DNA of 36,014 nt, taken from positions 1 to 36,014 of the IMG/VR virus record IMGVR_UViG_3300025104_000140; one strand, given 5' to 3'. A program made the translations under genes and the position numbers. How positions within the stretch are numbered: the first letter of the stretch is position 1; every line of letters begins with the position of its first letter. Positions 874 to 32,641 of the stretch are shown here, piece by piece. This DNA is from a virus. Under the pieces are notes generated by a model. It worked only from the letters and a program-made list of their open reading frames with translations, ran no database searches and was not told where the DNA came from.

Positions 874-1112
874 CCGCTTTTGCCCAAACCGTCAGGCAGC
901 TGTTAGATGAGCGAAAAATGCGTCCGCTTCATCTGGCACGTAAAGCTGGCGTATCATCTGGGTACATTTCTGAGCTACTGAGCGGGAAGAAGGGTTCAGA
1001 TCCAACGTTATACATCGTGCAGAAAATAGCGCGTGGGTTTGATATGTCTACAACGGCCTTTATTAGCCAGATGGAAGATATCGCACGGGCGGAAAATAAT
1101 GAATGCTGGTAA
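858..1112 (+). CDS. Small XRE-family HTH regulator (Cro/Ner position)
   Basis: An 84-aa protein made almost entirely of one XRE/Cro-type helix-turn-helix domain (residues about 8-68, with LARKAGVSSGYISELLSGKKG as the helix-turn-helix core). It is the first gene of the early operon and is divergent from the repressor, the position of ner in Mu and cro in lambda. It probably turns down early and/or repressor transcription. The ATG at 858 is preceded by a -10 box and no Shine-Dalgarno. It overlaps the transposase start by 14 nt. Confidence 0.8.
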   Translation: MRVYQTAFAQTVRQLLDERKMRPLHLARKAGVSSGYISELLSGKKGSDPTLYIVQKIARGFDMSTTAFISQMEDIARAENNECW

Positions 1113-3177
1113 CGTACAAATACCAGAAAATTGGGTCTGCACAGATGAAGTTTCTCGGGCGTGGGATAAGTCGGCAGACTCTGTTCTGAGGCTAAAGGCT
1201 AATCCACGGACTCGATGGGTGCGGGTGGTAGGTAGAGCAGGTGGACGAGGCAAAATCTATTTCGATCCCGCCACCATCGAGCAAATCTGGGGCCCCCCTG
1301 TTAATCCTCTACCTGAACCGGAGCCCATAACCGACGTAATCCTGCCATCTCCGACGGCAATCGTCCACTATACAGACGCCCCATATACCGCTGAACCAAC
1401 CCCAAGCGCCCTGGCCAATCGGCCGTTGCTCCCTGACCTGCGCCGGATTGATCCAGAGGTTCGAGCTTTGTGGGAGCGCATTGAGCAACTGCGACAGCAG
1501 CTGGCCCAGGCCCGACGCGGCGAGCGCACTGCGATTATCGAGGCATTCGCAAAACATGAGAGCGTATCCACAAAAACCGTTTATGCATGGCTCAAAATGT
1601 CGGCCCGCAAATTCTTCAAATCGCACCGTGCTGACACGGGCTCGATGCAAATTCCTACCGAGCTGGTGGAGGCTACCACCAGCCTGTGGCTACACCATCC
1701 CAAAGCCAGCGCCTGGATGATTCACCGCTGGCTCCAGATAGCGAACCCCGACATCCTTATATATAAGCGCGGGAACTACGAGCGGCGATTCAGCGTTCGG
1801 GGGGTGCGGGACATCCGCAAACGCCTCGAGGCCAATCCCATCACCCGGGCTGCATTGATGAATGAGGATGAGCGCCGGGAGTTTATTCGTACCTGGTCGG
1901 GCGCGGTGGTGGCCACCCACCCCAACGAACTGTGGCAGATGGACATGACCCGCTGCGATGTACTTGTGTGGGGCTATGCCCGGCCCAAGGATACCGAGCC
2001 CAGCGCCTTCCGCTTGCGCATCCACGACTGCATCGACCACTACACCGGCGCCATCCCCGCCCTGATCTTTTCCCGCGAGGAAAGCCGACGCCCCACCACC
2101 CGCCTCCTGATCCTGGGGCTGTTCCCCAAACCGGGCGGGTGGAACATATTCGGCAAGCCCAAGCGCATCTACCACGACAACGGCTCAGCCTACATCGCCG
2201 AGGCCACCCAGCGCGGCCTGGCCACCCTGGGCATTGAGACCAGCACTTCCCAGGCCTGGGTGAGCCACACCCGGGGCAAGGTGGAGAACTTCCACAAACT
2301 CTTCCATGCCTGGGAGCGCACCCTGCCCGGCTACGCCGGCGAGGACGCCAGCCAACGCAACGACTGGGAGCTGGCCCGGCTCATCCAGAACACCCGCACC
2401 TGGTGGGAGAAGGGCTGCCCGCCCGAGGCCGACCCGGGCCGGGGTAACCGCCTCCTACTGGAAGACGAGTACAAGCAGGAGGCCCTGAACTGGCTCCAGA
2501 ACGACTACCACGCCCGCATCCTGCCCGGAGGCTATACCCGCGCCGAGCTGTTCCTGCAGGAGGTGCCGCCCGAGACCCAGATCCAGTACAACCTGCGTGA
2601 CCTGCTGGAGATTTTCGCCGAGAGCGAGGAGCGCACCGTGACCGGCAACGGCGAGATTCGCTGGAAGAACCAGCGCTACACCCTGCCCGACGGCAGCCTG
2701 ATGCTTTACCAGAACCGCACGGTGGTAGTTACCGAGTTCGAGCACCCGCTCACCGGGGAAGCGGTCGTTAACCTATATATACGCCAACCCGACGGGGGCT
2801 TGCTCGAGCTGGGCCAGGCCATCCCTGCCCCCGAAAATGCACTTTCCCCGGAGGCCAAAACGCAGCGCCGGGCGAACAAAACTGCCATCAAGGAACTGTT
2901 CGCCCAGGCCGAGGCCTTCCGCCAGCAGTACCTCAACCCGAGCTGGCGACAGGATGCCGTCCTGGCCAAAGGGCAACCCGCAGAGCCGATCACCCTGGAG
3001 CTGCGCGGGCCTAAAGCCGAACTGAGACGCGAGACCCCGGCCCAGGCCGCCCTCAAAGCCGCCGAAAGCCAGGCCGAACTGATCGAGAAGATGCGCCAGA
3101 GCGACAACCCGTTGAGCCGCGCCCTGGCGAACCTAGGTATGGGCACATCGGCCCCCGATCCCTTTGGAGAGGAGTAA
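1099..3177 (+). CDS. muA: MuA-type DDE transposase
   Basis: Strand-transferase that integrates and replicates the phage by transposition, 692 aa against 663 in Mu. The N-terminal region (about 1-70) looks like the Mu-type winged-helix DNA-binding domain. A second helix-turn-helix region (about 155-185, IEAFAKHESVSTKTVYAWLK) follows. The catalytic core has Asp282 (QMDMTRCD), Asp360 (IYHDNGS) and Glu396 (RGKVENFHK), so the last two are separated by 35 residues. A beta-barrel-like region (about 520-580) precedes a basic, helical C-terminus. The ATG at 1099 is chosen because it overlaps the upstream gene and begins at the domain; an in-frame upstream start at 1033 would add 22 unlikely residues. 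The first roughly 700 bp are visibly less GC3-rich than the remainder. Confidence 0.93.
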   Translation: MNAGNVQIPENWVCTDEVSRAWDKSADSVLRLKANPRTRWVRVVGRAGGRGKIYFDPATIEQIWGPPVNPLPEPEPITDVILPSPTAIVHYTDAPYTAEPTPSALANRPLLPDLRRIDPEVRALWERIEQLRQQLAQARRGERTAIIEAFAKHESVSTKTVYAWLKMSARKFFKSHRADTGSMQIPTELVEATTSLWLHHPKASAWMIHRWLQIANPDILIYKRGNYERRFSVRGVRDIRKRLEANPITRAALMNEDERREFIRTWSGAVVATHPNELWQMDMTRCDVLVWGYARPKDTEPSAFRLRIHDCIDHYTGAIPALIFSREESRRPTTRLLILGLFPKPGGWNIFGKPKRIYHDNGSAYIAEATQRGLATLGIETSTSQAWVSHTRGKVENFHKLFHAWERTLPGYAGEDASQRNDWELARLIQNTRTWWEKGCPPEADPGRGNRLLLEDEYKQEALNWLQNDYHARILPGGYTRAELFLQEVPPETQIQYNLRDLLEIFAESEERTVTGNGEIRWKNQRYTLPDGSLMLYQNRTVVVTEFEHPLTGEAVVNLYIRQPDGGLLELGQAIPAPENALSPEAKTQRRANKTAIKELFAQAEAFRQQYLNPSWRQDAVLAKGQPAEPITLELRGPKAELRRETPAQAALKAAESQAELIEKMRQSDNPLSRALANLGMGTSAPDPFGEE

Positions 3178-3205
3178 TCGAGGGCCGTGCCGAAAGGAGA
3201 TAGGG

Positions 3206-4012
3206 ATGACAGAACCTATTTTGGGATCGTTGGAGCTGATTCGTCAAGCCATCGCCCAGGCGGTGGGCGAGGGTGTCATCGTGCCGGAGGATCGGCCCGA
3301 CCTGCTCTACACCACCGCCACCCGCACCATTACCGAGCGGGTGCGCTTTGGCCTGAAGCGCCAGTTCAAGTTCGTGCTGGTGCACGGGCCCGCTGGGGTA
3401 GGCAAGACCGCCACCCTAAAGCATTTGGCCGAGCAGGTGGGCGGGGCCTATATCCGCTGTTATCCCGATTTCTCGGCCCCGGCCCTGGTGCGGGCCCTGG
3501 CGGAGCGCCTGCAGATTACCCAGGTCGAACGGTTCCACGTGCTGCTCAACATCACTGTAGAGAGCCTGCGGCGTAACCCCCGGCTGATCATCCTGGATGA
3601 CATCGAGAACGTCCCGCGTAGCACTCTGGGAACGGCTAAATATTTGGCCGATGAAACCAAAAGCACGATCGTGCTCTGCACGATGGACGAGTACGTGCCC
3701 CTGGTGCGCCGTTACCGGGACATCGAGAGTCGGATTGGCATTGTGGCGCAGGCCATGCCGCTCAAACAGGGCGAGTTCGCCCGGCTCTTTGGCCAAAGCG
3801 GCTTTAGCCCCGCCGCCCTCAAAGCAATTTATAACCACACTGGCGGGGTGATGCGGGACATCGAAAACCTGATGCGCAGCCTGGATGACGCCCTTGACGT
3901 ACTGAACGCCGAGGCCCCCGAAGGCCAGCCCCAGTTCACGCGCGGACATATCGAGCCGCAAAACGTGGACGAGGCCGCCGGTTTATTGAATCTGGCAGGA
4001 GGAAGCCGATGA
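3206..4012 (+). CDS. muB: MuB-type AAA+ target-DNA activator ATPase
   Basis: ATPase that in Mu binds target DNA, delivers it to the transpososome and stimulates MuA; 268 aa. Walker A is GPAGVGKT at 61-68 (Lys67) and Walker B is LIILDD at 127-132. The C-terminal part (about 190-268) is helical, as in MuB. Compared with MuB (312 aa, Walker A near residue 100), most of the N-terminal helix-turn-helix appendage is missing. AAGGAG lies upstream of the ATG. The 3' end overlaps the next ORF by ATGA. Confidence 0.9.
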   Translation: MTEPILGSLELIRQAIAQAVGEGVIVPEDRPDLLYTTATRTITERVRFGLKRQFKFVLVHGPAGVGKTATLKHLAEQVGGAYIRCYPDFSAPALVRALAERLQITQVERFHVLLNITVESLRRNPRLIILDDIENVPRSTLGTAKYLADETKSTIVLCTMDEYVPLVRRYRDIESRIGIVAQAMPLKQGEFARLFGQSGFSPAALKAIYNHTGGVMRDIENLMRSLDDALDVLNAEAPEGQPQFTRGHIEPQNVDEAAGLLNLAGGSR

Positions 4013-27943: not shown

Positions 27944-28420
27944 ATGCAAGAACGACTGACCAAAGCCATCAAACAACTGGCCCGCCCTGCGCACCTGGAC
28001 TACCTGGCGCTCTACCCCGGCAGCGTGCTGAAGGACTACGAGGATATGCACGTGGATGTGCAGGTGGACGACCCGCGCCTGGGCGCCCTGACCCGGGTGC
28101 CGATCTGGACGGGACTGCCCGGCGTAACCGTAAAAGTCGCTCCGGGGGCACGAGTACTTGTGGGCTTCCACCAGGGCGACCCCGAGCTGCGCTACTGCGA
28201 TCTGTGGCGGGGCGAGGGGCTGCGGGAAGTGCGGCTCACCGCCAGCGTAAAGGTGACGGTGGATGCGCCCCTGGTGGAGCTGGGGGGCGCGGGGGGCTCG
28301 AATATATTGCTCCAGGGCCAGCCGTTGACGTTTGTGTTTAACACGACCCCTATTGCGATGGTGCCCACCACCGGCACCGTGCAGGCGGGGGGCTCGAGCA
28401 GGGTGCGGGGGGTGCAGTGA
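27944..28420 (+). CDS. Baseplate spike (Mu gp45/gpV-like)
   Basis: A 158-aa protein with an OB-fold-like N-terminus (YPGSVLKDYEDMHVDVQVDDPRLGALTRVPIW then VKVAPGARVLVGFHQGDPELRYC) and a C-terminal region of short repeating beta strands (VRLTASVKVTVDAPLVELGG), the usual triple-stranded needle stalk. It would sit at the tip of the tail tube and puncture the outer membrane. Confidence 0.8.
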   Translation: MQERLTKAIKQLARPAHLDYLALYPGSVLKDYEDMHVDVQVDDPRLGALTRVPIWTGLPGVTVKVAPGARVLVGFHQGDPELRYCDLWRGEGLREVRLTASVKVTVDAPLVELGGAGGSNILLQGQPLTFVFNTTPIAMVPTTGTVQAGGSSRVRGVQ

Positions 28421-28794
28421 TGGCCGACTTCGGCACCGACCTATCGGTTTTCCCTGACCTGTCCTGGACCTTGAAAAGCGGCCTGGACAACCTGGCCGAG
28501 GCGGCAGCCCGCTGCCTCATAACCGCGCCGGGGAGCCTGTTTTATGCCCCCGAGTACCGCCTGGATCTCAAGCAATTCCTGAACCGCGAGATCACCCCGG
28601 AAACCTTGTTCGAGATTGAGGTGCGGGCGACGAATGCGCTGGAGGCCGACCCCCGCATCCTGAGCGCCGAGGTGGTTGCCAGCCAGCCGCAGTGGAACCA
28701 GCTCGATCTGGATATCGTGCTGCAAACCGAGGAAGGCCCCTTCAGCCTGGTGGTGCGGGTCAGCGATCTGAGCGTGGAGGTGCTGCGTGCCTAA
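28420..28794 (+). CDS. Baseplate wedge protein (Mu gp46/W, gp25-like)
   Basis: A 124-aa protein (ATG 28420 overlapping the spike stop; a GTG lies 3 nt upstream). The order is DLSVFPDLSWTLKSGLDNLAEAAARCLITAPGSLF, then LKQFLNREI, then DPRILSAEVVASQPQWNQLDLDIVLQT. This is the lysozyme-like gp25/W wedge pattern, connecting sheath to baseplate. It overlaps baseplate J by 8 nt. Confidence 0.8.
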   Translation: MADFGTDLSVFPDLSWTLKSGLDNLAEAAARCLITAPGSLFYAPEYRLDLKQFLNREITPETLFEIEVRATNALEADPRILSAEVVASQPQWNQLDLDIVLQTEEGPFSLVVRVSDLSVEVLRA

Positions 28795-29869
28795 CCTGCA
28801 ACAGCTACTACAGCCCCGCTCGCGGGATCAGGTGCTGGCTGCGCTGATCCAGTTTTTGCAGAGCAAGGGCTACCCCCCCACCGACTGGGTCGAGGGCAGC
28901 GTCCAACGCACCCTGGTGGAGCTCCAGGCTGCCGGGATTGCCGACCTCGAGGCCCTCCGCGTGGAGATCGCCAAGGGCGGGTTTCTCGATACGGCGACCG
29001 GGGACTACCTGGACTTGCTGGGCCAGAGCGCCTACGCACTCCCCCGCAAGCAGGCCACCTTCGCCCGGCAGACCTTCCGCCTTACCGCCCAGGCGGGGTT
29101 TGGCCCTTACAGCATCCAGCCCGGCCAGCTATGGGCGGGTAATGCCGCCGGATTGCGCTTCAACAACCTGGACGGTGGCACCCTGCCCCTGGGCGGCACA
29201 CTGGATCTGGAGTTTCGGGCCGAGAGCCCGGGCGCGGCGTATAACCTGCCCATTGGCTCCGGCACGATTATGTTCACACCGCTCCCAGGGGTGACCATTG
29301 TGAACACGGCAGTGCTGGAAGCAGCCATTGACAAAGAGAGCGACGCCGCCTACCGCGAGCGTTGCCGGCTGCGCTGGGGGGAGCTGGGCTACGGCGCTAC
29401 CCGCGCCGCCTACGAAAGTTGGGCGCTGTCCAGCACCCCATCAATCACCAAGGTGAGGGCTTTGGACAACAACCCCCGCGGCCAGGGCACGGTGGACGTG
29501 GTGGTCTGGGGGGAGGGCGGCCTGGGGCCGGGGGCCGTTGCCGCGGCGGATGCATACATTCAACAGCGCAAGCCCCTGACCGCCAACGTGCAGGTGTACG
29601 CCGCTACCCAGGTGAACATCCCGGTGACCGCTACCATCCGTCTGCGGGCCGGCTTCCTCACCCAGGTGCAGGCCGAGGTGGCCACCCGACTGACTGCGTT
29701 TCAGCAGAGTCTTCCCATCGGGGCAATCGTATACCGCTCGGCCTTGATCGAAGTGCTATTCGTAACCAACGTCCTCGATGTAGCCCTGACCGCCCCCTCT
29801 GCCGATCAAACCCTGACCCCCACCCAGGTGGCCGGGTTTACGCCGAACGTCACGTACCAGGAGGTGTAG
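28787..29869 (+). CDS. Baseplate J-like wedge protein (Mu gp47)
   Basis: A 360-aa protein from GTG 28787 behind GGAGGTGCTGC. It shows the J family hallmarks: FLDTATGDYLDLLGQSAYALPRKQATFARQTFRLTA, an AGNAAGLRFNNLDGGTLPLGGTLDLEFRAESPGAAYNLP strand block, then KESDAAYRERCRLRWGELGYGATRAAYESWALS and VDVVVWGEGGLG. It forms the wedge core and contacts the tail protein that follows. Confidence 0.9.
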   Translation: MPNLQQLLQPRSRDQVLAALIQFLQSKGYPPTDWVEGSVQRTLVELQAAGIADLEALRVEIAKGGFLDTATGDYLDLLGQSAYALPRKQATFARQTFRLTAQAGFGPYSIQPGQLWAGNAAGLRFNNLDGGTLPLGGTLDLEFRAESPGAAYNLPIGSGTIMFTPLPGVTIVNTAVLEAAIDKESDAAYRERCRLRWGELGYGATRAAYESWALSSTPSITKVRALDNNPRGQGTVDVVVWGEGGLGPGAVAAADAYIQQRKPLTANVQVYAATQVNIPVTATIRLRAGFLTQVQAEVATRLTAFQQSLPIGAIVYRSALIEVLFVTNVLDVALTAPSADQTLTPTQVAGFTPNVTYQEV

Positions 29870-31540
29870 ATGCCAGGCCAGGAGATAGAGTTAATCCCAG
29901 TCCGGCTCTACGAGGACTGGCTGCCTGAGCTGGCCCCGCCCTGGCTGCAACAAGAACGGGGCCGGGCGTTACTGGCCGGCTGGGGCCAGGCGCTGGATGA
30001 GTACGCTTCCCTCGCTGCGACCGGCCTACTGGCCCGCTGGGCCGCCATCGCACCCGAGGACGCCCTAAATCTGCTGGGAACGGAACGGGGCCTGACCCGC
30101 TATCCCGGCGAATCGCTGGAAGGCTGGCGCACCCGGGTGCTCGGGGCTTGGGAATTCTGGCAATGGTCGGGAACAGAATATGGTCTCGCGGTGGCCCTGT
30201 CGCAGCTTGGCTACGCCTCCGCAATTGTGCCCGTCTGGACCTACGACACTGCGCGGTGGAGTGAGTTCGATATCTATATTTATCCCGCCAGCCGTAGCTA
30301 TGACGGCACCCCCGAGGAGCGGGCCCGCATCCTGGCGATTATCAACAAAGTCAAACCGGCCCACACCAGGCTGGCGGCTGCCTATTACGTCGGATTTGGC
30401 CCGCTCACCTGGAACCCGTCCGGCCTGACCTGGGATCCTCCCGGCCAGGTGTGGGGGGCACCTCCCATCCAGCTGTGGCCAGAGCAATCGTATTACCCAA
30501 ACCCGACGGGGTTGCGTACCTTTTATGTATCCCCGTCAGGCTCCAATAGCAATCCGGGCACCATCAACCAGCCCTGGCAAACCATTGGGTACGCCATCAG
30601 CCAACTGACGGCGGGAGATGTGCTGCGAGTCCTCGACGGGGTATACAACGAATATGTGCACATCAATCGCAACGGCACCCCCACCAACCGCATTGTGATC
30701 ATGGCGCAGAACAAATGGGGCGCCAAAATCAATGCCGCTGGGCATAACTACGGCATCACTTTTGGGGGCAGCTATATCGATGTGATCGGGTTCGAGGTAT
30801 ACGGGGCGGCGAGGGTGGGGATAATGTCCTGGACGTATAACCCGGCCAACGTGTACCAGAGCAACCGGGTGCTGTGGTGCTATGTGCACGATATCATCCC
30901 ACCCTGCGATTCGGATGGCGGCGCGGGGATTGTTTTTTCCACCTACTCGGAAAACTGCGAAGCAGCCTACAACGTGGTGCGGGATATTGGGAACTACGCT
31001 GCCGGGCCCTGCACCTGGATTCATGGCATCTACGCCCAGGGGTATGGGGCCATCGTCCGAGGTAACTTTGTGCAGCGTGTGCGAGGGTACGGCCTGGATA
31101 ACTGGCACAGACCGAAGAATGGGTACATCATCAACAACACTGTGGTGAACTGCCGGTATGGTGGGCTCTCGCTGGGCACCGACGTGGCGGGGCACACGGT
31201 GGATGGATACCTGGTTGCCAACAACATCTTTGCCCTCAACGGCAGCTACGGGGTGCAGGAGGTGGCCCAGACCGGGGTCAACCAATTTTTGAATAACCTC
31301 AACTGGGGCAACCCCACCAACTGGGCGCTGGCGACCAGCACCCATCAAAACAGCATCAACGCCGATCCAAAGTTTGTGGACTATCAGGCCAGCGGCAACG
31401 GCAACTACCGATTGCTGCAAAGCAGCCCGGCCATCAACGCAGGGGCGCTGGTGAGCCAGCTCCCCGAATACGATCTGGATGGATTGCCCAGGCTGCGCGG
31501 GGCGCCCGACATTGGCGCCTACGAACTACAGGAGGCCTAA
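29870..31540 (+). CDS. Baseplate wedge gp48-like protein fused to a right-handed beta-helix
   Basis: A 556-aa protein. Residues 1-210 match the Mu gp48/tail protein I-like group (LLGTERGLTRYPGESLEGWRTRVLGAWEFWQWSGTEYG, WSEFDIYIYP). Residues about 215-556 begin TFYVSPSGSNSNPGTINQPWQTIGYAIS and continue as parallel beta-helix rungs with NRIVIMAQN, YIDVIGFEVYGA, NTVVNCRYGGLSLG and a SPAINAGALV ... GAPDIGAYEL end. This C-terminal pattern occurs in polysaccharide-binding or -cleaving proteins. A tailspike or depolymerase covalently attached to the wedge is the likely meaning. Catalytic residues are not identifiable by eye. Confidence 0.85.
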   Translation: MPGQEIELIPVRLYEDWLPELAPPWLQQERGRALLAGWGQALDEYASLAATGLLARWAAIAPEDALNLLGTERGLTRYPGESLEGWRTRVLGAWEFWQWSGTEYGLAVALSQLGYASAIVPVWTYDTARWSEFDIYIYPASRSYDGTPEERARILAIINKVKPAHTRLAAAYYVGFGPLTWNPSGLTWDPPGQVWGAPPIQLWPEQSYYPNPTGLRTFYVSPSGSNSNPGTINQPWQTIGYAISQLTAGDVLRVLDGVYNEYVHINRNGTPTNRIVIMAQNKWGAKINAAGHNYGITFGGSYIDVIGFEVYGAARVGIMSWTYNPANVYQSNRVLWCYVHDIIPPCDSDGGAGIVFSTYSENCEAAYNVVRDIGNYAAGPCTWIHGIYAQGYGAIVRGNFVQRVRGYGLDNWHRPKNGYIINNTVVNCRYGGLSLGTDVAGHTVDGYLVANNIFALNGSYGVQEVAQTGVNQFLNNLNWGNPTNWALATSTHQNSINADPKFVDYQASGNGNYRLLQSSPAINAGALVSQLPEYDLDGLPRLRGAPDIGAYELQEA

Positions 31541-32641
31541 ATGCCAAAAACACTCAACCCCACCAACGCTTTTCCTACCAGCATCCCAAACTTCCCACAG
31601 GCCGGGAACAACGAGCCGGTGGCCATCGGCCCACTGGAAGCCGCCATCCAGGCGGTGCTCAACCGCACCGAGCACCTGCACCAATCGCGGTTGGTGGTCG
31701 AAGGGGCCGGCATCAAGCGCATCCAGAGGGTGGCGTCGCTATCAGCCCTGCAAAACCTGGCCGGGATGAGTGACGGCGACGTCGTGGATGTCGAGGGATA
31801 TGGACGCTATCGTTTGTACAACCCATCGGCCCTCGTCGCCGATGGGTTGTGGATCCTAACCGCCACCGGCGGAGGCCGATGGGTGCATGTGTTGAACACC
31901 CTGCGGGGAGCGAACTCCGGCCTGGCCACGCTGACTAGCGGCGGGCAGCTGGCCCAGGATGTGCGGGACGGCAGCATCCTCACCGCGCACCTGGCCAACG
32001 CTGCGGTCACCGGCCCCAAGCTGGCCCCGGGGGCTGTAATAGCCAGCTTGGGCTACACACCCCTTAACAAGGCCGGCGACACCATGACCGGCCAGTTGAT
32101 CAACACCGAGCGCATATTCGCCCACCGGCAAATAGGGTCGGGGGGACCGTTCATAAGCGTGGCTATCGGGGACGATGACACGGGGTTGAACTGGGTGAGC
32201 GATGGCCTTGTGAATATGGTTGCCAACGGGATTGTGGCTGCTCAATGGAGTGGAGCTGAATTCAATGTGAATGTTCCGATCAACGGGCGGTACAACCACC
32301 AGCGCCGATTCACGGTGAGTGGGTGCGTTGGTGGGACGGGTGGTGGAACGCTGGCAAATGGAGATACCAGTACTCGGCAAACATTCGCGGTGCAGTTAAA
32401 CAATCAGGTGTTGCGATTAGTCCGGGCGCGATTTTGGCCGCTAACATCGCTGAAGCTGCGGGTAAGCAACACTCTGGTGTGGACCAGCAGCACTTACGGA
32501 GGTGAGTTTACACCGAATGTGGCGCTTTGTAACCAAACCTCAAGCACCATTCTCGTATTCATAGACCTCCTGAACGACTCGGGGGCATCAGTGACAATTC
32601 CACAAGCTGCGGGCTGGTGGCTGGAGTTCGAGATTCAATAG
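31541..32641 (+). CDS. Tail fibre protein (366 aa)
   Basis: The N-terminal part (about 1-60) has MPKTLNPTNAFPTSIPNFPQAG. A small barrel-like module (about 65-125) carries GDVVDVEGYGRYRLYN and GGRWVHVLN. A GYTPLNKAGDTMTGQL fibre motif lies at about 169-184. The C-terminal part is beta-rich with TLVWTSSTYGGEF and GWWLEFEIQ. ATG 31541 follows AGGAGGCC. The fibre motif is widely shared among phage fibres. This gene and those downstream are less GC3-biased than head genes. Confidence 0.8.
   Translation: MPKTLNPTNAFPTSIPNFPQAGNNEPVAIGPLEAAIQAVLNRTEHLHQSRLVVEGAGIKRIQRVASLSALQNLAGMSDGDVVDVEGYGRYRLYNPSALVADGLWILTATGGGRWVHVLNTLRGANSGLATLTSGGQLAQDVRDGSILTAHLANAAVTGPKLAPGAVIASLGYTPLNKAGDTMTGQLINTERIFAHRQIGSGGPFISVAIGDDDTGLNWVSDGLVNMVANGIVAAQWSGAEFNVNVPINGRYNHQRRFTVSGCVGGTGGGTLANGDTSTRQTFAVQLNNQVLRLVRARFWPLTSLKLRVSNTLVWTSSTYGGEFTPNVALCNQTSSTILVFIDLLNDSGASVTIPQAAGWWLEFEIQ

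What the first reader, a model, noticed from the sequence alone, without database searches (positions are those of the whole stretch)
29870..31540. Baseplate wedge protein covalently fused to a beta-helix spike
The first 210 residues are a gp48-like wedge protein, while residues 215-556 form a right-handed beta-helix with sugar-enzyme-like ends. In Mu the wedge and fibres are separate. Six copies of a depolymerase-like domain would thus be built into the baseplate, a possible adaptation to the thermophile envelope.
Basis: partly seen in the sequence, partly recalled or inferred. Interest (0 to 1): 0.6.

Follow-up and report, generated by a model that had tools for sequence, protein, structure and literature searches.

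The report
Phage baseplate part carrying sugar-cutting domain
A Mu-like virus of the hot-spring bacterium Meiothermus has welded a polysaccharide-cutting-enzyme-like domain, related to proteins that Meiothermus keeps beside its own slime-making genes, onto a core part of its injection baseplate, probably so that it can cut through that slime to reach the cell.

Summary
The fusion is real. ORF 29870-31540 (556 aa) has an N-terminal baseplate-wedge protein (Tail_P2_I; Tri2, Mu gp48-like), a 7-11-residue linker and a right-handed beta-helix ending in a choice-of-anchor-Q domain.

It is not a lost-stop artefact. The same intact frame occurs in four further distinct records (81-100% identity) with dN/dS 0.06-0.10 on the helix. 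About 20 unfused Thermaceae relatives stop exactly at the junction (...LYP*), and the same separate fibre gene follows in both arrangements. The helix is therefore an added module, and the fibre was not replaced. One recombination breakpoint lies on the junction.

New here: the closest cellular relatives of the helix (45-48% identity) are predicted Meiothermus lipoproteins encoded inside an exopolysaccharide (EPS) biosynthesis locus. Two proteobacterial relatives also sit in polysaccharide loci. Fold and profile matches are to PL9/PL6 polysaccharide lyases.

Best reading: a baseplate-tethered depolymerase or binder for the host's own EPS, probably captured from a Meiothermus EPS-locus gene. 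Catalysis, substrate and direction of transfer are inferred; no catalytic residue could be assigned. 'Adaptation to the thermophile envelope' is not supported, because most thermophile relatives lack the fusion. I call it a new variant of a known kind (virion-borne depolymerases).

The parts
29870..30481 (+). wedge part (Tail_P2_I / Tri2 / gpI), residues 1-204; unfused homologues stop here
   Evidence: Pfam Tail_P2_I 6.8e-6; R2 pyocin Tri2 PA0619 0.0042; baseplate folds incl. Mu 9ki1_a; unfused stops
30482..30514 (+). linker EQSYYPNPTGL, residues 205-215; domain junction and recombination breakpoint
   Evidence: alignment A2; junction DNA; L008 changes from 100% identity with L009 to 100% with the window here
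30515..31363 (+). right-handed beta-helix, residues 216-498
   Evidence: DUF1565 above cut-off, Pel9A-like below it; PelN profile match; fold search; 45-48% identity to Meiothermus EPS-locus lipoproteins
31364..31531 (+). choice-of-anchor-Q C-terminal domain, residues 499-554
   Evidence: NF041518, 39.8 bits vs cut-off 25
31526..31543 (+). Shine-Dalgarno AGGAGG for the fibre gene embedded in the last helix codons (CAG GAG GCC TAA ATG)
   Evidence: sequence; same in L006, L007, L008
31541..32641 (+). separate tail fibre gene retained downstream (366 aa); same N-terminus as the fibres behind unfused wedge genes
   Evidence: PHROG tail fibre; MPKTLNP.. N-terminus in fused and unfused loci
28787..29869 (+). 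baseplate J (gp47-like, Tri1)
   Evidence: Pfam Baseplate_J 5.7e-37
28417..28794 (+). gp25-like sheath initiator / wedge
   Evidence: phrog_975 1.7e-10
1033..4012 (+). MuA-like transposase and MuB-like ATPase (marks the phage as Mu-like)
   Evidence: phrog_310 7.9e-43 and phrog_296 1.3e-24; rve

Best explanation
The protein is the Tri2/gpI wedge subunit of a Mu-like Meiothermus phage, extended at its C-terminus by a polysaccharide-lyase-type beta-helix. Because Tri2 is built into each of the six wedges and sits where fibres attach, about six helices would project from the baseplate beside the ordinary fibres (inferred). They would bind and cut the exopolysaccharide that Meiothermus makes from the locus encoding the helix's cellular relatives, probably by beta-elimination next to a uronic acid, and so open a path to the cell surface (inferred). 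The module probably came once from a Meiothermus EPS-locus lipoprotein gene or a close relative. It was inserted in frame between the wedge and fibre genes, and is now exchanged between phages by recombination at the domain junction.
For: Fusion intact in five records and conserved in frame. Helix dN/dS 0.06-0.10. Unfused relatives stop at the junction and the same fibre gene follows. Wedge identity. Helix fold matched to PL9/PL6 lyases. Nearest full-length homologues are Meiothermus proteins with apparent lipoboxes, in a locus with a nucleotide-sugar dehydrogenase, flippase, O-antigen-ligase-like protein, glycosyltransferases and a Wzz-like protein. Homologues in EPS or polysaccharide loci of Azospirillum and a Paracoccaceae plasmid. 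Phage and Meiothermus helices form one group against outgroups, 100/100. M. taiwanensis DSM 14542 (L009, G002) and KatS3mg071 (L008, G001) carry both the fused prophage and the EPS-locus relative. A known analogue of an EPS-locus beta-helix lyase is V. cholerae RbmB (PMC11637428), also a weak fold hit.
Against: No catalytic residue could be assigned: the lyase profiles align only over the first coils, and no Lys, Arg, His or Asp in a likely active-site position is invariant across all homologues. The last 130 residues are modelled with low confidence. The EPS-locus relatives are themselves uncharacterised and could be epimerases or binding proteins. The tree does not resolve whether the phage clade sits inside or beside the Meiothermus clade (support 52/85).
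Confidence: 0.58

Rival explanations
1. The helix is a non-catalytic carbohydrate-binding arm on the wedge that gives a second, lower-affinity attachment to EPS or another surface glycan.
For: No assignable catalytic site; beta-helices also serve as receptor-binding domains (beta-helix pectin-lyase folds among eCIS fibre domains, PMC12923769).
Against: Strong purifying selection, with lower dN on the helix (0.087) than on the wedge part (0.243) between the window and L007, is unlike a rapidly diversifying receptor binder; nearest solved folds and profiles are mostly enzymes.
Confidence: 0.25
2. The helix modifies EPS without cutting it (for example a C5-epimerase of the AlgG/AlgE kind, or a de-esterification activity), helping the phage diffuse.
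For: EPS-locus position of the relatives; pectin methylesterases and AlgE4 are among the fold hits.
Against: Best profile and fold hits are lyases; no clear advantage of an epimerase on a virion.
Confidence: 0.1
3. Fusion caused by a lost stop codon or an assembly error joining two adjacent genes.
For: The stop TAG of unfused relatives lines up with GAG in the fused genes.
Against: Unfused relatives encode no helix downstream of the stop; the fusion is intact in five records from different sources, at synonymous divergence up to about 1.5.
Confidence: 0.02

Closest known systems
Mu gp48 / P2 gpI / R2-pyocin Tri2 PA0619 (Tail_P2_I)
   Same: Gene position gp25-J-I-fibre, Tail_P2_I domain, fold matches to baseplate wedge proteins of Mu, phi812 and phiCD508
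   Different: The known and unfused forms are about 160-220 aa and carry no enzyme-like domain; here 345 aa of beta-helix are added
Phage tailspike depolymerases with a beta-helix (P22, Dettilon TSP, Klebsiella RBPs)
   Same: Right-handed beta-helix carried by the virion, presumed to act on surface polysaccharide
   Different: Tailspikes are separate trimeric fibre-position proteins; here the helix is covalently part of a wedge subunit expected in six copies, and its nearest full-length relatives are cellular lipoproteins
V. cholerae RbmB, a beta-helix lyase of its own EPS
   Same: Beta-helix lyase encoded in the biofilm-matrix gene cluster (PMC11637428); weak fold match; analogue of the Meiothermus EPS-locus proteins
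   Different: RbmB is a secreted cellular enzyme, not on a virion; sequence similarity was not tested
PL9 lyases (Pel9A 1ru4, rhamnogalacturonan lyase 5olq)
   Same: N-terminal cap and first coils by profile (3.4e-7) and fold (3.1e-5)
   Different: No alignment over the catalytic part; below family cut-offs
Bacillus phage phiNIT1 PghP and LevP
   Same: Matrix-degrading enzymes thought to be acquired from a host (PMC6966330)
   Different: PghP is released at lysis and LevP is not a tailspike, whereas this domain is fused to a baseplate protein

Membership tests
Tail_P2_I / Tri2 baseplate wedge protein | Pfam PF09684 above gathering score | tested here: met
   26.5 vs 20.6 bits, residues 57-164
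Tail_P2_I / Tri2 baseplate wedge protein | Gene order gp25 - J - I - fibre | tested here: met
   28417 gp25-like, 28787 J, 29870 I, 31541 fibre
Tail_P2_I / Tri2 baseplate wedge protein | Fold of a solved wedge subunit | tested here: met
   phi812 2.1e-4, phiCD508 2.7e-4, Mu 9ki1_a 6.8e-3; model pLDDT mostly 55-75 there; R2 Tri2 profile E 0.0042
Tail_P2_I / Tri2 baseplate wedge protein | Six copies in the assembled baseplate | not testable with these tools
   Only by homology to 6u5b/6u5k (12 chains in 2 entries)
Right-handed beta-helix (pectin-lyase-like) domain | Beta-helix family or domain above curated cut-off | tested here: met
   DUF1565 25.4 vs 20.3; choice_anch_Q 39.8 vs 25; Beta_helix and Pel9A models below their cut-offs
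PL9 polysaccharide lyase | Full-length PL9 profile match above cut-off | tested here: not met
   PF22842 21.5 vs 25.2, only positions 9-53 of 370; PelN 35 vs 740
PL9 polysaccharide lyase | Catalytic Lys and calcium-binding Asp cluster | tested here: inconclusive
   Region not aligned by any profile; no invariant candidate across homologues
Tailspike depolymerase | Homotrimer and polysaccharide cleavage | not testable with these tools
   Needs biochemistry or cryo-EM
Mu-like transposable phage | MuA-type transposase and MuB-type ATPase with a contractile tail | tested here: met
   phrog_310, phrog_296, tail sheath phrog_907

The most novel reading that the evidence does not exclude
A virion depolymerase architecture in which a cellular EPS-locus enzyme, rather than a trimeric tailspike, is welded into the Tri2 wedge of a contractile baseplate, giving six single-chain enzymes that act on the host's own EPS. 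The host EPS operon that carries the paralogue would then directly name the phage's substrate.
Probability: 0.45. Interest if true: 0.62.

Novelty: new variant of a known kind. Interest (0 to 1): 0.5.

Why it matters
Virion-borne depolymerases are well known, but they are normally separate spikes or fibres. Here the module is part of the wedge itself, the fusion is recent enough to compare with many unfused sister phages, and its cellular relatives lie in one recognisable EPS operon. That turns 'what polysaccharide does this phage cut?' into a direct test, suggests how phages could recruit host matrix enzymes, and offers a possibly heat-stable EPS-active enzyme and a wedge attachment point for study in contractile particles.

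Tried and rejected
Lost stop or assembly error: rejected. Relationship to known phage tailspikes: no INPHARED phage record has a helix match below E 0.01. The Synechococcus ACG-2014f 'baseplate wedge initiator' hit (E 0.04) looked like a precedent, but the translated protein is a very long repetitive, fibre-like sequence and is not counted as one. AlphaFold2 of the full protein gave no usable C-terminal model; the helix alone was better but still poor after residue 200. Searching Deinococcota for Tail_P2_I proteins found no other fusion to this helix; one longer frame (G005) carries an N-terminal extension instead.

Full report
What is there. The ORF at 29870-31540 is a single open frame of 556 codons in a 36-kb virus record that also encodes a MuA-like transposase, a MuB-like ATPase, a tail sheath and a baseplate. 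It lies after gp25-like and J-like genes and directly before a tail-fibre gene. The first 204 residues are a Tail_P2_I protein: Pfam 26.5 bits against a cut-off of 20.6. A profile of ten relatives finds R2-pyocin Tri2 PA0619 (E 0.0042), and a Foldseek search of the model returns baseplate subunits of phi812, phiCD508 and Mu itself.

The C-terminal 345 residues. DUF1565 (above cut-off) and Pel9A-like (below it) match the first coils. The choice-of-anchor-Q domain (39.8 against 25 bits) matches the end. A profile built with cellular homologues finds a PL9 rhamnogalacturonan lyase at 3.4e-7. An AlphaFold2 model of the domain is good over its first 100 residues and poor over the last 130. Its best PDB matches are PL9, PL6, pectin methylesterase and GH136 beta-helices. 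A right-handed beta-helix is well supported; an exact enzyme class is not.

The fusion is real and derived. The same intact frame occurs in L005 (100%), L006 (91%, identical in this gene to the M. taiwanensis DSM 14542 prophage L009), L007 (81%) and L008 (93%). In about twenty related Meiothermus and Thermus phages the wedge protein stops after '...LYP' or the like, a few bases before the fibre start codon. In the fused genes the stop is replaced by EQ(S/A).YPN, the helix follows, and the fibre gene starts immediately after it. Its Shine-Dalgarno AGGAGG now lies in the last codons of the helix. The helix was therefore inserted between two genes that are otherwise neighbours, and the fibre was kept. 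Synonymous divergence reaches about 1.5 with dN/dS 0.06-0.10, so the domain is maintained. Between the window and L007 the helix has lower dN (0.087) than the wedge part (0.243).

Modular exchange. L008 is 100% identical to L009 through the wedge gene up to about position 30,480 and then 100% identical to the window from about 30,540 to 30,780. The switch falls on the domain junction, which indicates recombination that swaps the helix module.

Where the helix comes from. No INPHARED phage has a convincing match. In IMG/VR only the fused phages and one unrelated viral contig at 38-40% (L107) have full-length matches. The nearest full-length relatives are Meiothermus chromosomal proteins at 45-48% identity, most beginning with a signal and a lipobox-like motif (LAACIT., TACATD). 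They typically come as a pair about 15 kb apart. In one complete genome the pair flanks a locus with a nucleotide-sugar dehydrogenase, Gfo/Idh oxidoreductase, DegT aminotransferase, asparagine-synthase-like protein, glycosyltransferases, Wzz-like protein, flippase and O-antigen-ligase-like protein, with galactose-oxidase-like kelch proteins next to the second copy. Homologues at 34% and 25% lie in polysaccharide loci of Azospirillum ramasamyi and a Paracoccaceae plasmid; the Massilia homologue does not obviously do so. The phage copies form one clade, grouped with the Meiothermus proteins against the outgroups with 100/100 support; whether they branch inside or beside the Meiothermus proteins is unresolved. 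GC content of the helix (0.586) resembles the EPS-locus genes (0.565-0.598) more than the wedge part (0.652), though the fibre gene is also low (0.598). Capture from a Meiothermus-lineage EPS gene is the simplest reading; it is inferred.

How it probably works. From the homologues, Tri2 is present once per wedge, six per baseplate, and in R-pyocin-like baseplates the Tail_P2_I protein is the fibre adaptor (PMC12923769). A C-terminal helix would then stand at the baseplate rim beside the fibres. V. cholerae RbmB, encoded in the biofilm-matrix gene cluster, is a beta-helix lyase of the bacterium's own EPS (PMC11637428), which makes the same role plausible for the Meiothermus proteins. Shown: the fusion, wedge identity, helix fold, EPS-locus relatives, selection. 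Inferred: six copies, cleavage, the EPS as substrate, host-to-phage transfer.

Weak points. No catalytic residue is assigned; profile matches to lyases cover only the first coils; outgroup homologues do not share an obvious catalytic Lys, His or Asp. A binding-only helix or an EPS-modifying activity remains possible. The thermophile-envelope idea is not supported, because most phages of the same thermophiles lack the domain. I could not survey all Tail_P2_I architectures, so similar fusions elsewhere are not excluded.

Noticed in passing
L028 1480-3567 (-) (G005): A related Tail_P2_I protein has a long N-terminal extension instead (open frame about 700 aa; a plausible start gives about 480 aa), with no Pfam match before the Tail_P2_I domain.
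   Followed up: partly
L087, L090, L100 (C-termini of unfused wedge proteins): Thermus-type wedge proteins end in Trp/Asp-rich repeats (WDDG..WDD) that vary in number between phages.
   Followed up: no
L016, L017, L102: Meiothermus EPS-locus beta-helix lipoproteins occur in a short form and a form with a Big_7 Ig domain, the latter facing a galactose-oxidase-like kelch protein.
   Followed up: partly
window 28284-28583 vs L008: Identity between L008 and the window or L009 drops to 0.65 across the end of the spike-like gene (27944-28420) while flanks are about 0.9, a second variable module in the baseplate region.
   Followed up: no
window 31541-32641: The fibre gene behind the fusion has a conserved N-terminus but a different C-terminal part and length in the window (366 aa) than in L006/L008 (244 aa).
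   Followed up: no
L107 591-4026: A viral contig carries three adjacent glycan-enzyme-like genes (a beta-helix-like, a GH5-like and a Pel9A-like protein 38-40% identical to this helix), two with very similar N-termini.
   Followed up: partly
L018 969-2228 (+): A TnpB-like transposon protein (judged by eye from its sequence) lies convergent to an unfused wedge gene in a Meiothermus draft genome.
   Followed up: no
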